Positions 1,123-8,434 of a stretch of DNA of 64,000 nt are shown here, piece after piece. Every line of letters begins with the position of its first letter. The stretch's first letter is position 1. Position numbers and translations under genes: made by a program. This DNA is from Chitinophaga pinensis. GTDB lineage: Bacteria; Bacteroidota; Bacteroidia; NS11-12g; UBA9320. The notes under the pieces were generated by a model that saw only the letters and a program-made list of their open reading frames with translations, made no database searches and was not told the origin of the DNA. Location: positions 108,847 to 172,846 of the forward strand of contig CAMDGU010000001.1 of assembly GCA_945897885.1 (NCBI GenBank), in the 5' to 3' direction.

Positions 1123-1130
1123 TACTTTTG
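1123..1130 (+). promoter_or_regulatory. Bacteroidota -7 promoter element TActTTTG upstream of riboswitch
   Basis: TACTTTTG matches the TAnnTTTG consensus, just 5' of the riboswitch. Confidence 0.4.
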
Positions 1131-1149
1131 CCATTGATTTTGGGTTTGG

Positions 1150-1345
1150 CATTTTAGCAAATGCTGAATTAAAAGGGAATCCGGTGAAAATCCGGAACAT
1201 TGCCCGATGCTGTAAGCTCCGTCAATGTTTTTTACATTCAAAGCCACTGATTTATTACCGTTGCTTTAAAGCAACGGCAAAAGATTGGGAAGGCAGTAAA
1301 AAACAGGAGTAAGTCAGAAAACCTACCACAATCAAACATATTTTA
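1150..1345 (+). ncRNA. Cobalamin (B12) riboswitch
   Basis: AAAAGGGAAUCCGGUGAAAAUCCGGAACAUUGCCCGAUGCUGUAAGCUC ... AGCCACUG ... UUGGGAAGGC ... AGGAGUAAGUCAGAAAACCUACC: canonical conserved core with the AGCCACUG B12-box-like segment. Confidence 0.93.
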
Positions 1346-1504
1346 GAAGCTTTCGGGAACAAAAGCTGAAAAGGTCTGATACTTTGTATTATTAGTCTTT
1401 TTTGGATTTTAGTTAGCTAAAGCAGTTATTAGGTTAATGAGTTATCAAGTTATTTTAAACTCACCCTCTAATTACGCAATAAATAATAACTTAATAATAA
1501 AAAA

Positions 1505-3163
1505 ATGTATAAATCAATTTTAACTCTTTTAGTAATTGTGGCTTTTTGTATCTCTGCATTGGCACAAAATGAAATGCGTACCAATGTGTCAACCTTTGAT
1601 GTGATTCCATTAAAGTCAAATGGATATTACAATGGTAGCGACCTGAAAGGTGGCTTTTGGAACGGACATTTTGAGTATAAAAATACTTATGACACCGCAT
1701 GGAAAGTATGGACGGGAATATCAGTTTCGAATATGACAGATACGATTACTAATAGTTTTACCAATGAATATAGTAGTATAACTGGTGGTGGAATTAATGG
1801 TACAAAAAATTATGCGGTTTGTTTTTTAGGAGGAACTATAGTACCTGAAAAAACTACCAAACTAACAGGATTTTATGTAACCAACACCACTTATGCCTAT
1901 AAAACAATTAAAGCAGGTTCGGCATTTTCTAAAAAGTTTGGAGGAACTTCAGGAAACGATAAAGATTGGTATAGACTAAAGGTGATAAGCTATTCGGGAG
2001 CCAATAAATCAGATTCTATGTTGTTTTATTTAGCCGATTTTCAGAATGATGATAATTCAAAGGATTATATTTTGAATAAATGGACGTGGGTTGATTTAGG
2101 AAATTTTAAAGCCTCTGACAGTTTAATTCTTTCGTTCGAATCCAGTGATGTGGGGTCATTTGGCATTAATACACCAACTTATGTAGCTATTGATGATTTT
2201 AATGCCGTCGCTTCTACAGATTTAAATATGAACCCGGGGTTATTTTTTAATAATTCTGAATTTTTTACAAAAGGCAATGTTTGGGATGGGCAAAATGATA
2301 CTTCAGGAGGTTTTGCATATGGTAAATTGTATTTTGAAAACAGCTACAACACACAATGGGGGTCGTTTAGTGGTTGGGCAGTTAGCAAAAATATTGATAC
2401 CACAAAATCGGGATATGATGCACAATACAGTGCAATAACTGCCAACGGGGCAAGTACAAAATTTTATAAGGATAGCAGTTTTGCCGTTTCTTACGGGCGA
2501 AGCGTTATTCGTTTGCCATATAAACGAGGAGGTTGGCCAGTAACCTACTTTAGATTTTCATACACGAATAATACGTATACCTATAAATCAATGAAATATG
2601 GAGATGGATTTAGTAAAAAATTTGGCGGACCAATGGGAACCGAGCCCGATTTTTTAAGACTATTTGTTATCGGTTATGACGATAACAATATTCCGGTAGA
2701 TACTTTGGGATTGGATGATATGAATGATGAAATGGCTTTGGCAGATTTTAGGATGAACCGAAGCTATTTAAATAAAAACTGGACTCCTTACATTAGCCGT
2801 GGATTTAAAAAGAACATTGTTCGTATGGAGTTTCAATTAGAATCAACCGATGTAGGTACTTTTGGAATGAATACCCCGGCCTATTTTTGTTTGGATAATT
2901 TATTCGAAGTTCCTATTGAATCAGTTAGTAAATCGGATAAGGGAATGATAAAGGTTTATCCTAATCCGGCTTCAAATTTTATTATTGCTGATGTTCAAAA
3001 TGCGCAAGCTTATGAAATAATAGACCTTGCCGGTCGCCAATTTTTAGTAAATGAAAATCCTGATTCTAATAAAATTGATATTTCAGAATTGCCCAATGGT
3101 ATTTATTGCTTAAAGGTAAAGGCCAATGAAAGGATATATACTTCTAGGTTTGTAAAGTTGTAA
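1505..3163 (+). CDS. Tandem DUF4465-domain protein with T9SS C-terminal sorting domain; candidate secreted cobalamin-binding protein
   Basis: Two copies of the pattern TNTTYAYK..GxxFSKKFGG...D(W/F)xRL...LADF...W...L......ESTDVGxFGxNTPxYxxxDN, signal peptide MYKSILTLLVIVAFCISALAQ, C-term KVYPNPASNFIIADV...SRFVKL; directly downstream of the B12 riboswitch. Confidence 0.88.
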   Translation: MYKSILTLLVIVAFCISALAQNEMRTNVSTFDVIPLKSNGYYNGSDLKGGFWNGHFEYKNTYDTAWKVWTGISVSNMTDTITNSFTNEYSSITGGGINGTKNYAVCFLGGTIVPEKTTKLTGFYVTNTTYAYKTIKAGSAFSKKFGGTSGNDKDWYRLKVISYSGANKSDSMLFYLADFQNDDNSKDYILNKWTWVDLGNFKASDSLILSFESSDVGSFGINTPTYVAIDDFNAVASTDLNMNPGLFFNNSEFFTKGNVWDGQNDTSGGFAYGKLYFENSYNTQWGSFSGWAVSKNIDTTKSGYDAQYSAITANGASTKFYKDSSFAVSYGRSVIRLPYKRGGWPVTYFRFSYTNNTYTYKSMKYGDGFSKKFGGPMGTEPDFLRLFVIGYDDNNIPVDTLGLDDMNDEMALADFRMNRSYLNKNWTPYISRGFKKNIVRMEFQLESTDVGTFGMNTPAYFCLDNLFEVPIESVSKSDKGMIKVYPNPASNFIIADVQNAQAYEIIDLAGRQFLVNENPDSNKIDISELPNGIYCLKVKANERIYTSRFVKL

Positions 3164-3289: not shown

Positions 3290-5113
3290 TTGAAAAATAT
3301 TCGTTACCTCTTTTCGTTTTCCAATAAGTTTCCGATGCACAGGCTTAGGTTTGCAAGCTTCAATATTCTTGCATCCTTGTTTGGAGCCTTTTCCATCATG
3401 ACGGTGGTACCTTTTTTACAAATTATTTTTAATTTAAATCCATCATCAGCCAATCAAAAACCATCTTTGGCCGGCCAAGTGGGTTTGGTAAATGAGGCAA
3501 ATGCCTGGCTAAAGTTGCAAATTATAGAATGGGGAAGTTTTTATTCGCTTGTATTTTTTTCCTGCATGCTGGTTGTTATGTTTTTGCTAAAAAATTTAAG
3601 CTTGTTCATAGCATTTACCGGGTTATCACACATGCGGGCCGGAATATCAAGTCATTTGCGTGAGCTTATGTTTCACAAACTTTTAAAACTTCCAATGAGT
3701 TTTTATTCTTCTGAACGAAAGGGGGATTTAATAACCCGCGCTACCAACGATGTTCGCGAAGTTGAATGGAGTTTTATAGGTGTTTTGGAAATGGTTTTAA
3801 AACATCCGTTTATGCTGCTTATTCCCTTTGGTTTGTTGTTTTATATCAGTTGGCAACTCACTCTTTTTGTTTTAATAGTATTGCCAATAAGCGGTTATGT
3901 TATAAGCCGGCTTGCAAAAAAATTGAAAAAAGCAGCCCGTTTGGGAACTGAAAAATTGGGAGATGTAATTTCTCAATTTGAAGAAACCTTGGGTGGAATA
4001 AAAATTATTAAAGCTTTTAATGCAGAGGGAAAAAGTTCATCCCATTTTGACGAAAAGAACAACGACCATTTTCGATTAACAAAAAAAGTTTTGAAACGGG
4101 AGTATGCTGCATCTCCTCTTAGTGAGTTTATGGGTTCCATTGTTATGTCATCAATTTTAGTATTTGCTGGAAGATTAATTTTAAACAATAATTTTGGGTT
4201 AAGTGGTGAAATGTTCATTATGTACATTGCTATGTTTAGCCAGTTAATACCCCCGGCAAAGGCTTTGAGCGAAAGTTATTTCAGACTCGAAAAAGGAATG
4301 GCATCTATGGAAAGAATTAATGAGGTGCTTCAGGCCGAGGATGGTATTCATGAAATGCCTGATACGTTAGAAGTTCAAGATTTTAAAGAGAGCATTGTTT
4401 TTAAGAATGTTTCATTTCACTACAATCCGGGAACTCCAATTCTTAAAGAAATTAATTTAGTTATTCATAAAGGAGAAAAAGTAGCATTGGTTGGAAGTTC
4501 CGGAGCAGGAAAGTCTACTTTGGCTGATTTGGTATTGCGGTTTCATGACCCGGTTTCAGGTGAAATTCTTTATGACGGTGTAGATATTAAAAAAATGTCG
4601 CTAAGAGGGTATCGAAATAAACTCGCGGTTGTTACCCAAGAGCCAATATTATTTAATGATAGTGTGGAAAGTAATTTAAAGTTAGGGAATCCTTATGCTA
4701 CCGATGAGCAAATGATAGAGGTCGCCAAACAAGCCAATGCCCATTCATTTATTGAACCTTTGGAAGACGGTTATCAATCCATAGTGGGGGAGAGGGGAGG
4801 CAAACTTTCGGGTGGACAAAAGCAACGATTAACCATAGCACGAGCTATACTTAGTAATCCTGAAATACTTGTATTAGATGAGGCCACTTCCGCTTTGGAT
4901 TCAGAATCAGAAAAACTAGTGAATGATGCCCTTGAAAAATTGATGGAGAATCGCACCTCTATAATTATTGCTCACCGATTAAGCACTATTCAAAATGCTG
5001 ATAAAATAGTAGTGATGGAACATGGAAGAATAGTAGAAATAGGAACACATACCGATTTAATAAAGAAAGAAGGGATTTATTATTCGTTGTATAAGCTGCA
5101 AAGTTTGGGGTAA
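3290..5113 (+). CDS. ABC transporter ATP-binding/permease protein (MsbA-like half transporter)
   Basis: TM domain plus Walker A GSSGAGKST, signature LSGGQKQR, Walker B ILVLDEATSALD; TTG start. Confidence 0.93.
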   Translation: MKNIRYLFSFSNKFPMHRLRFASFNILASLFGAFSIMTVVPFLQIIFNLNPSSANQKPSLAGQVGLVNEANAWLKLQIIEWGSFYSLVFFSCMLVVMFLLKNLSLFIAFTGLSHMRAGISSHLRELMFHKLLKLPMSFYSSERKGDLITRATNDVREVEWSFIGVLEMVLKHPFMLLIPFGLLFYISWQLTLFVLIVLPISGYVISRLAKKLKKAARLGTEKLGDVISQFEETLGGIKIIKAFNAEGKSSSHFDEKNNDHFRLTKKVLKREYAASPLSEFMGSIVMSSILVFAGRLILNNNFGLSGEMFIMYIAMFSQLIPPAKALSESYFRLEKGMASMERINEVLQAEDGIHEMPDTLEVQDFKESIVFKNVSFHYNPGTPILKEINLVIHKGEKVALVGSSGAGKSTLADLVLRFHDPVSGEILYDGVDIKKMSLRGYRNKLAVVTQEPILFNDSVESNLKLGNPYATDEQMIEVAKQANAHSFIEPLEDGYQSIVGERGGKLSGGQKQRLTIARAILSNPEILVLDEATSALDSESEKLVNDALEKLMENRTSIIIAHRLSTIQNADKIVVMEHGRIVEIGTHTDLIKKEGIYYSLYKLQSLG

Positions 5114-5121
5114 GAGTTTCT

Positions 5122-6567
5122 CTATCCCCTCGCTCTGTTCAGCCTGTCATTTATTGCCGGTCCCAATCCATTGGGAGGGAAATTTTCCGTAATAATTAGT
5201 TCCAAATTTAAATTATCCAGCTCACGCATGGCAGCAAAAAGATTATGTGCTGCTTCTTCCGTTGATTTATTTTGAGATAATACTCTTTGGTTTTCTATAG
5301 GTAAAAAAACAAATGGGGCATGGAATGTAATGGATCCAGTTTTTGTAATATCAATTGTGTTAAAATCAATTTCGGTGATAAGTTTTAAAGGCGTACGGGT
5401 GGCATAATGCTTATCCAATTGCCCGGGTGAATTGGGTTTAGAATGGGAGGCTATATTTAGAGAAACTTTCCCTATGCAGTTTTCAATAGCTTCAATACTT
5501 AATCCCCCAAGTCTCAAAATGGTCGCATTTTCTTCGTCTTCAAACATAACAATCGTAGATTCAAGACCAACTTCGCATGGTCCTCCATCCAATATATAGG
5601 AAACTTTATCTCCTAATTGTTCTTTCACATGCTTTGCTGTGGTTGGGCTTACATATCCAAAAGGGTTAGCACTGGGAGCTGCCAATGGAAAAGGAAGTTG
5701 TTTTAATAAATTTAACGTTAGGGGATGATTGGGAACTCGCAATCCTACGAATTGTAAACCTGAGGTAACCATGTCGGAAATTATTTCGCTTTTGGGCAGT
5801 ATTAGCGTTAAAGGTCCAGGCCAGAAGGCTTCCGCAAGTTTGTGTGCTTTTTCAGAAAATGAGGTTGTGTACTTACCTACTTCCTTTATGTCAGAAATAT
5901 GAACTATTAACGGATCAAAAAATGGACGGTTTTTAATTTTAAAACTATCAGTAACAGCTTCTTCGTTCAGAGCATTAGCTGCCAATCCGTAAACCGTTTC
6001 CGTTGGGATGGCTACAACATTACCTAACATTAGCAAACGAACTGCTAAACTTATTTGAGAAGTTTCATCTTTTGGCTCTAACTGTTGGTTTGCAGGGATT
6101 AGTATCGGGGTAATGTCTGAATTTAGGTGGTCTTCACTTGCTTCAAAATTATCAGAATTTTGTGTCAAAGCCTTGTCCCCCTTCGAAGGGGGTTGGGGGA
6201 TGATTTTATCACCATTAATCCAGTTTTCAATTCTTAATCCTACATTATGAATGTCGTTCATTACCTCTTCATCCTTAAATCTTAAAATGGAATACCCTAA
6301 TTCATTTAGCCTTTTCTCCCTTACATTATCTTTAATATAAATTTTTTCAATACCATGCGAACAACCATCTACCTCAATAATCAACTTTAAATCTCTACAA
6401 AAAAAATCAGCAATGTATTTGTCTATTGACCTTTGTCTTAAAAACGAAAAACCTTGCATTTGTTTGTTTCTTAGCAATTCGCACCACAATCTTACTTCAG
6501 CTTTAGTGCTGTGGTTTCGATGCGATTGGGCAAACTTTTTTAGGTTCTTGTTGTAATGGTGAAACAT
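5122..6567 (-). CDS. DUF559 endonuclease-like domain fused to L-threonylcarbamoyladenylate synthase (YrdC/Sua5)
   Basis: N-term DUF559 (TKAEVRLWCELLRNKQMQGFSFLRQRSIDKYIADFFCRDLKLIIEVDG.SH...LNELGYSILRFKDEEV); repeat-encoded linker IIPQPPSKGDKAL; C-term YrdC (VVAIPTETVYGLAANAL...KNRPFFDPLIVHI...FWPGPLTLIL...PLAAPSANPFGYVSPTTA). Confidence 0.85.
   Translation of the reverse strand: MFHHYNKNLKKFAQSHRNHSTKAEVRLWCELLRNKQMQGFSFLRQRSIDKYIADFFCRDLKLIIEVDGCSHGIEKIYIKDNVREKRLNELGYSILRFKDEEVMNDIHNVGLRIENWINGDKIIPQPPSKGDKALTQNSDNFEASEDHLNSDITPILIPANQQLEPKDETSQISLAVRLLMLGNVVAIPTETVYGLAANALNEEAVTDSFKIKNRPFFDPLIVHISDIKEVGKYTTSFSEKAHKLAEAFWPGPLTLILPKSEIISDMVTSGLQFVGLRVPNHPLTLNLLKQLPFPLAAPSANPFGYVSPTTAKHVKEQLGDKVSYILDGGPCEVGLESTIVMFEDEENATILRLGGLSIEAIENCIGKVSLNIASHSKPNSPGQLDKHYATRTPLKLITEIDFNTIDITKTGSITFHAPFVFLPIENQRVLSQNKSTEEAAHNLFAAMRELDNLNLELIITENFPPNGLGPAINDRLNRARG
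6175..6202 (+). repeat. GGGGG-type palindromic repeat, inside the fusion ORF
   Basis: gtcccccttcgaagggggttgggggatg. Confidence 0.75.
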
Positions 6568-8020: not shown

Positions 8021-8049
8021 TTTATTTTTATTCTATTTATTCAAAAAAA

Positions 8050-8434
8050 GTGCAAACCGATAAGCCGGGTTCTGTATCTTAACCTTTCGGTTACGATGCC
8101 TGTCATTTATCTATGCGACCTACCCTCCTTGTCTTTAACCATTACTGGCTAAATAGGGCGAGCAACCCTAAATACACGGTTTACATGGTCTTACAACGCA
8201 TAAGGTTTTTTCCAACCATACATCACTGCAAGTTGCGTGGGCTCTTACTCCGCGTTTTCATCTTTTCCTTTGTTTCTTGCGAAACGCAGGTAGTCATTTT
8301 CTGTAACACTTTCTGTTTTCGGATTTTATCCCGAAACCTTTCATTTCTAAAAGTATGCTGCTCTGTGTTGCCCGGACTTTCCTCCCTCAATAATGCCTAA
8401 ACATTACCAAAAGCGACAGGCTGGTTTGCAGAGC
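8050..8434 (-). ncRNA. rnpB: RNase P RNA component (bacterial class A)
   Basis: Reverse strand contains GGGAGGAAAGTCCGGGCAACACAGAGCAGCATAC near the 5' end, GGGTAGGTCGCATAGATAAATGACAGGC and CAGAACCCGGCTTATCGG at the 3' end; no credible ORF. Confidence 0.93.

What the first reader, a model, noticed from the sequence alone, without database searches (positions are those of the whole stretch)
1123..3163. B12 riboswitch controlling a tandem-DUF4465, T9SS-exported protein: candidate secreted cobalamin-binding system
Seen: a canonical cobalamin riboswitch is followed about 160 nt later by one gene. That gene encodes a signal peptide, two DUF4465-like domains (TNTTYAYK...FSKKFGG...LADF...ESTDVGxFGxNTPxY) and a T9SS sorting tail (KVYPNPASN...). 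No TonB-dependent receptor or BtuCD is adjacent. Established knowledge: B12 riboswitches in Bacteroidota regulate cobalamin uptake, and gut Bacteroides carry surface B12-binding lipoproteins of the BtuG/BtuH type; from memory the BtuH type corresponds to DUF4465, but I could not verify this here. Inference: this lineage may use T9SS rather than a lipid anchor to put a two-site B12 scavenger on the cell surface or release it as a cobalophore-like protein.
Basis: partly seen in the sequence, partly recalled or inferred. Interest (0 to 1): 0.72.

Follow-up and report, generated by a model that had tools for sequence, protein, structure and literature searches.

The report
Secreted two-site vitamin B12 catcher
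A vitamin-B12-sensing RNA switch sits in front of a gene for a secreted protein made of two copies of a domain already shown elsewhere to grip vitamin B12, so this bacterium probably puts a double B12 catcher on or outside its surface when the vitamin is scarce; the binding domain is known, while the export route, the doubling and the split from the uptake operon appear to be undescribed variations.

Summary
A cobalamin riboswitch (RF00174, 94 bits, 1124-1344) precedes a 552-aa gene with a signal peptide, two DUF4465 domains (145 and 109 bits) and a type A T9SS tail. One reader identification is wrong: DUF4465 is the BtuJ family, not BtuH. DUF4465 was shown to bind B12 in 2025-26, which makes the functional guess stronger and less novel. 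Both domains keep the BtuJ1 B12-contact residues and fold like B12-bound DUF4465 structures. The genome has SprA, is B12-dependent and lacks a corrin-synthesis marker. In related genera the gene sits inside a conserved operon: riboswitch-btuB-DUF4465-[unknown T9SS protein c4]-btuG. Only in the window's genus is the operon split: btuB-c4-btuG lie elsewhere behind their own riboswitch, and DUF4465 stands alone at what synteny suggests is the old site, with a longer leader holding a terminator-like hairpin. Solo and tandem forms also arose independently in other Bacteroidota. Best reading: a B12-repressed, T9SS-exported, two-site B12 scavenger feeding BtuB/BtuG; whether anchored or released is undecided. 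New variant of a known kind. Separate puzzle: this family lacks a recognisable BtuC.

The parts
1124..1344 (+). Cobalamin riboswitch aptamer (RF00174)
   Evidence: cmscan 93.9 bits, E 4.7e-22
1203..1207 (+). L5 loop (CCCGA), 5-bp kissing partner of L13
   Evidence: all five pairs invariant in 7 congeneric genomes, so no covariation evidence either way; complementarity by sequence
1348..1367 (+). P13 hairpin with L13 loop (UCGGG at 1353-1357)
   Evidence: same sequence core in all 7 genomes; folds; helix cells paired 91%
1368..1403 (+). AU-rich hairpin running into U6: putative intrinsic terminator (expression platform)
   Evidence: -11.9 kcal/mol, z -3.85; 94.5% of cells paired, 3 pairs changed on both sides in 7 genomes. 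Not flagged by the simple terminator scan, which wants 3 G-C pairs
1505..3163 (+). Tandem DUF4465 (BtuJ-like) T9SS-exported protein, 552 aa
   Evidence: AlphaFold2 pLDDT 89
1505..1564 (+). Signal peptide (type I, no lipobox), residues 1-20
   Evidence: sequence; hydrophobic helix in the model; no prediction program available here
1697..2200 (+). DUF4465 domain 1 (residues 65-232); Y130, N222, T223, Y226 match BtuJ1 Y146, N241, T242, Y245
   Evidence: PF14717 145 bits; phmmer to B12-bound structures; residues
2354..2902 (+). DUF4465 domain 2 (residues 284-466); Y358, N456, T457, Y460 match the same BtuJ1 residues
   Evidence: PF14717 109 bits; own model TM 0.74 to 9HMU; residues
2954..3157 (+). 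T9SS type A C-terminal sorting domain (residues 484-551)
   Evidence: TIGR04183 E 2.5e-14; structural match to the NucA tail in the T9SS translocon 8GLK, TM 0.79
3290..5113 (+). ABC exporter gene, a synteny marker and not thought part of the B12 system: its 50-57% identical orthologue follows btuG in other genera of the family
   Evidence: Pfam

Best explanation
This is a B12-repressed capture protein of the BtuJ (DUF4465) family. When intracellular cobalamin is low, the riboswitch lets the gene be expressed. The protein crosses the inner membrane through Sec, then the outer membrane through the T9SS, which removes the tail and leaves it on the surface or outside. There its two jelly-roll domains each bind one corrinoid and pass it to BtuG/BtuB, which are encoded by a separate riboswitch-controlled operon in the same genome. 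When cobalamin is plentiful, the aptamer with the L5-L13 kissing loop favours a downstream terminator-like hairpin and expression stops. Shown here: the parts, their conservation, the fold and contact residues, the operon history, T9SS presence and B12 dependence. Inferred: binding by this protein, the direction of regulation, surface location and hand-over to BtuG/BtuB.
For: Riboswitch and gene anatomy. Eight divergent DUF4465 proteins, down to 16% identity, bind B12 in the laboratory (PMC13398666); BtuJ1 Kd is about 0.16 nM (PMC12751083). Contact residues are kept in both domains and across 47 tandem relatives (N456 and T457 47/47, Y358 46/47, T223 47/47). Fold: whole protein to 9HMU TM 0.82 by target length, domain 2 alone 0.74. 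12 of 12 Rfam-tested loci from other Bacteroidota carry the riboswitch directly ahead of the DUF4465 gene; 33 of 38 genomes of the window's family have the riboswitch. In related genera the gene lies between btuB and btuG. SprA present at 2381 bits and dozens of other T9SS tails. MetH, methylmalonyl-CoA mutase and IcmF present; CbiC absent in 7 of 7 genomes.
Against: No binding, expression or localisation data for this protein. Tyr97 of BtuJ1 is Phe85 in domain 1. Domain 2 evolves faster than domain 1 in this genus, so it may bind more weakly or something else. The terminator is AU-rich and was not flagged by the standard scan. No BtuC-type permease was found in the genome, so import beyond the outer membrane is unexplained.
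Confidence: 0.78

Rival explanations
1. Released cobalophore: the protein is shed into the medium (or on vesicles) as a diffusible two-site B12 binder rather than anchored near BtuB, and works at a distance.
For: T9SS type A tails are used by both anchored and released proteins (general knowledge). BtuJ1/J2 act on vesicles and are compared to siderophores (PMC12751083). In this genus the gene is transcribed apart from btuB with its own switch.
Against: In sister genera the gene is within the btuB-btuG operon, which suggests joint work at the surface. No sequence feature decides anchoring.
Confidence: 0.3
2. Only domain 1 is a B12 site; domain 2 has been recruited for another job (another corrinoid, or docking to BtuB/BtuG).
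For: Domain 2 scores lower (109 against 145 bits) and has longer branches within the genus (0.43 against 0.14 for the window).
Against: All four core contact residues are kept in domain 2, and it still matches B12-bound structures.
Confidence: 0.2
3. Periplasmic or storage binder: the tail is not functional and the protein stays inside.
For: PMC13398666 describes non-lipoprotein DUF4465 proteins as bearing periplasmic signals.
Against: The tail is significant, structurally matched to a tail in the T9SS translocon, present in 76 of 79 relatives surveyed, and the T9SS channel gene is present.
Confidence: 0.06
4. Not a B12 binder: a jelly-roll surface protein (for example glycan-binding) under B12 control.
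For: Jelly-roll folds resemble carbohydrate-binding modules (weak hits).
Against: Family-wide B12 binding in the literature and conserved contact residues in both domains; weak CBM hits are far below the DUF4465 hits.
Confidence: 0.04

Closest known systems
BtuJ1/BtuJ2 of Bacteroides thetaiotaomicron (DUF4465, IPR027828; PDB 9FCT, 9QPM, 9I2L)
   Same: Same domain family, same fold, conserved B12-contact residues, B12-riboswitch control
   Different: BtuJ1/J2 are single-domain lipoproteins in btuB loci, found on vesicles; this one is two-domain, has a type I signal peptide and a T9SS tail, and is encoded alone
D5EK51 of Coraliomargarita akajimensis (PDB 9HMU)
   Same: Closest solved structure by sequence (E 7.3e-20) and fold; B12-bound
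   Different: Single domain, no T9SS tail reported, different phylum
Riboswitch-btuB-DUF4465(T9SS)-c4-btuG operons of related Bacteroidota
   Same: Orthologous gene with the same tail; same riboswitch class
   Different: There the gene is second in an operon with the transporter; in the window's genus the operon is split in two
BtuG (PF16819) and BtuH surface lipoproteins
   Same: Work like: surface capture of B12 for BtuB

Membership tests
DUF4465 / BtuJ family (PF14717) | Match to the family profile over its cut-off | tested here: met
   Two matches, 145 and 109 bits against 25
DUF4465 / BtuJ family (PF14717) | Augmented beta-jelly-roll fold | tested here: met
   AlphaFold2 models match 9HMU and 9FCT
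DUF4465 / BtuJ family (PF14717) | B12-contact residues (BtuJ1 Y146, N241, T242, Y245) | tested here: met
   Y130/N222/T223/Y226 and Y358/N456/T457/Y460
DUF4465 / BtuJ family (PF14717) | Measured corrinoid binding | not testable with these tools
   Needs purified protein
T9SS type A cargo | C-terminal sorting domain | tested here: met
   TIGR04183 and PF18962 over cut-off; 8GLK match
T9SS type A cargo | Signal peptide without lipobox | tested here: inconclusive
   By eye and model helix; no SignalP available
T9SS type A cargo | T9SS present in the genome | tested here: met
   SprA 2381 bits; other components not searched
Cobalamin riboswitch (RF00174) | Aptamer match over gathering score | tested here: met
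   93.9 against 31.5 bits
Cobalamin riboswitch (RF00174) | L5-L13 kissing loop and expression platform | tested here: met
   Complementary loops invariant in 7 genomes; P13 and following hairpin conserved
Cobalamin riboswitch (RF00174) | B12-dependent change in expression | not testable with these tools
   Needs RNA-seq or reporter
   DUF4465 is assigned to BtuJ, separate from BtuH; no BtuH structure among the matches

The most novel reading that the evidence does not exclude
Environmental Bacteroidota have a T9SS-borne surface B12 capture system (BtuB, BtuG, T9SS-tailed BtuJ and an unnamed T9SS-tailed partner), in which two-site binders arose repeatedly by tandem duplication. In the window's genus the binder has become an independently regulated, transcription-attenuated module that may be released as a diffusible cobalophore. 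In this family the captured B12 then enters by an inner-membrane importer that is not BtuCD.
Probability: 0.25. Interest if true: 0.7.

Novelty: new variant of a known kind. Interest (0 to 1): 0.45.

Why it matters
It extends B12 scavenging by surface binders from lipoproteins of gut Bacteroides to secreted T9SS cargo in free-living, mostly uncultured Bacteroidota. It also suggests that non-lipoprotein DUF4465 proteins need not be periplasmic, as the family paper describes the remainder. The repeated duplication to two sites and the split into separately switched units suggest that capture capacity is tuned apart from transport. The partner protein c4 and the missing BtuC give concrete, testable gaps in bacterial B12 uptake.

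Tried and rejected
Horizontal gain of the solo gene from Prolixibacteraceae-type solo genes: rejected by the protein tree (the genus groups with its own family at SH-aLRT 93; forcing it with the solo group gives p-AU 0.004). Single riboswitch per genome as a biological trait: rejected, contig C98 is cut inside btuB and the other six genomes have two. A single ancient tandem duplication: not supported, D1 and D2 labels need at least 6 changes on starred branches, though gene conversion is not excluded. A first regex for riboswitches missed 24 of 41 known and a second had a mistake and found none; the corrected one found 41 of 41 but still missed L152 and L167, which Rfam finds, so counts from it are lower bounds. 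c4 against solved structures: only its T9SS tail matches. No paper found in the open library joins DUF4465 with T9SS; subscription papers and preprints were not searchable.

Full report
What is there. At 1124-1344 lies a full-length cobalamin riboswitch aptamer (93.9 bits). About 160 nt later one ORF (1505-3163, 552 aa) encodes a signal peptide, two DUF4465 domains and a type A T9SS sorting domain.

What the domain is. DUF4465 (PF14717, IPR027828) is the BtuJ family. BtuJ1 and BtuJ2 of B. thetaiotaomicron are riboswitch-controlled lipoproteins; BtuJ1 binds cobalamin with Kd about 0.16 nM, and BtuJ1/J2 act on vesicles (PMC12751083). Eight divergent members bind B12 (PMC13398666). Both window domains hit the B12-bound structures by sequence (E 7.3e-20 for the whole protein, 6.9e-10 for domain 2) and by fold. 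The chain numbering printed for BtuJ1 equals the paper's, which let the contact residues be mapped: Y146, N241, T242 and Y245 correspond to Y130, N222, T223, Y226 in domain 1 and Y358, N456, T457, Y460 in domain 2, all nearly invariant among 47 tandem relatives except Y/F at the last position.

Export. The tail passes both curated cut-offs, and the model matches the NucA tail bound in the T9SS translocon (8GLK, TM 0.79). The genome has SprA (2381 bits) and dozens of other T9SS tails. The signal peptide has no acceptable lipobox and its cysteine is not conserved in the genus (inference by eye). Whether the mature protein is anchored or released is open.

Need for B12. The genome encodes MetH, methylmalonyl-CoA mutase and IcmF, but none of the seven genomes of the genus has CbiC, a marker of corrin synthesis. 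It is therefore probably a corrinoid scavenger; other synthesis genes were not searched.

Neighbourhood and history. In 108 genomes of the order, 77 have DUF4465: the window's family mostly tandem, its sister family single. In related genera the gene lies in a tight operon: riboswitch, btuB (TonB receptor), DUF4465, usually c4 (about 320 aa, no Pfam family but a T9SS tail), btuG (PF16819; profile hits solved BtuG structures at E 2e-85). In this order, the operon is split only in the window's genus. There btuB-c4-btuG lie elsewhere, led by their own riboswitch (62-80 bits), and DUF4465 stands alone behind a second riboswitch (94-100 bits). In this genome the first is missing, most likely only because contig C98 begins inside btuB. 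The ABC gene downstream of the window gene (3290-5113) is 50-57% identical to the gene that follows btuG in other genera of the family. The simplest reading is that the window locus is the old operon site and btuB-c4-btuG moved. The tree places the genus with its own family (SH-aLRT 93), and forcing it together with the solo genes of Prolixibacteraceae is rejected (p-AU 0.004). The solo arrangement therefore arose at least twice.

Two outputs for one switch class. The seven leaders in the genus keep L5 (CCCGA) and L13 (UCGGG) without change, the P13 hairpin, and then an AU-rich hairpin running into U6; pairing is 95% with four pairs changed on both sides, falling to 37-63% when slid. This looks like transcription attenuation. 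By contrast, in the five btuB leaders of the genus that could be read, P13 ends some 10-15 nt before the ATG, with no such hairpin, which suggests control of translation. The difference is by sequence and fold only. The standard terminator scan did not flag the hairpin. A tree of the aptamers themselves was too weakly supported to say where the second copy came from.

How general. A scan of 84,980 species' genomes gave at least 472 relatives; of the 79 best with a DUF4465 gene, 76 carry a T9SS tail and 58 are tandem. These were chosen by similarity to a tandem T9SS query, so the fractions are not population estimates. A riboswitch was found within 2.4 kb upstream in 58 of 68 assessable loci by regex, a lower bound, since Rfam found it in 12 of 12 tested, including two that the regex missed. 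A domain tree needs at least six changes between first and second domain, so two-site forms probably arose several times, unless gene conversion misleads.

Assessment. The working model is a B12-repressed, T9SS-exported two-site capture protein that supplies BtuG/BtuB. The kind is known (BtuJ); the T9SS route, the tandem form and the split regulation were not mentioned in the papers read. It is a new variant of a known kind, with moderate interest. The most surprising by-product is that almost the whole family lacks a strong BtuC (FecCD) match while nearly every genome of the sister family has one, leaving the inner-membrane step unexplained.

Noticed in passing
Family f1 genomes, including G000: No strong FecCD (BtuC-type) permease in almost all genomes of the window's family, while nearly every genome of the sister family has one, although btuB, btuG, DUF4465, riboswitch and (in the window's genome) B12 enzymes are kept. 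The inner-membrane B12 importer is unknown.
   Followed up: partly
G000 contig C98; L107:1314-2321; L197 (758 aa), L190 (1071 aa): Protein c4 (about 320 aa, T9SS tail, no Pfam family) accompanies DUF4465 and btuG, and is fused to two DUF4465 domains in two other genomes: a candidate unnamed B12-uptake component.
   Followed up: partly
L078-L083 leaders of btuB against window 1344-1505: The two cobalamin riboswitches of one genus appear to use different outputs: P13 close to the start codon for btuB, terminator-like hairpin for DUF4465.
   Followed up: partly
L039:3694-7077: In G003 a gene that starts like IcmF (B12-dependent mutase) lies directly upstream of the riboswitch-DUF4465 unit on the same strand.
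   Followed up: no
window 5122-6567 (-): Fusion of a DUF559 domain to a Sua5-type threonylcarbamoyl-AMP synthase with Sua5_C; a similar long form starts in G006 (L042).
   Followed up: no
window 8045-8432 (-): Bacterial RNase P RNA class A, 165.8 bits.
   Followed up: no
L182 and L220: Tandem or single DUF4465-T9SS genes in MAGs labelled Gammaproteobacteria and Verrucomicrobia; L182 groups tightly with a Crocinitomicaceae sequence, so mis-binning is likely.
   Followed up: no
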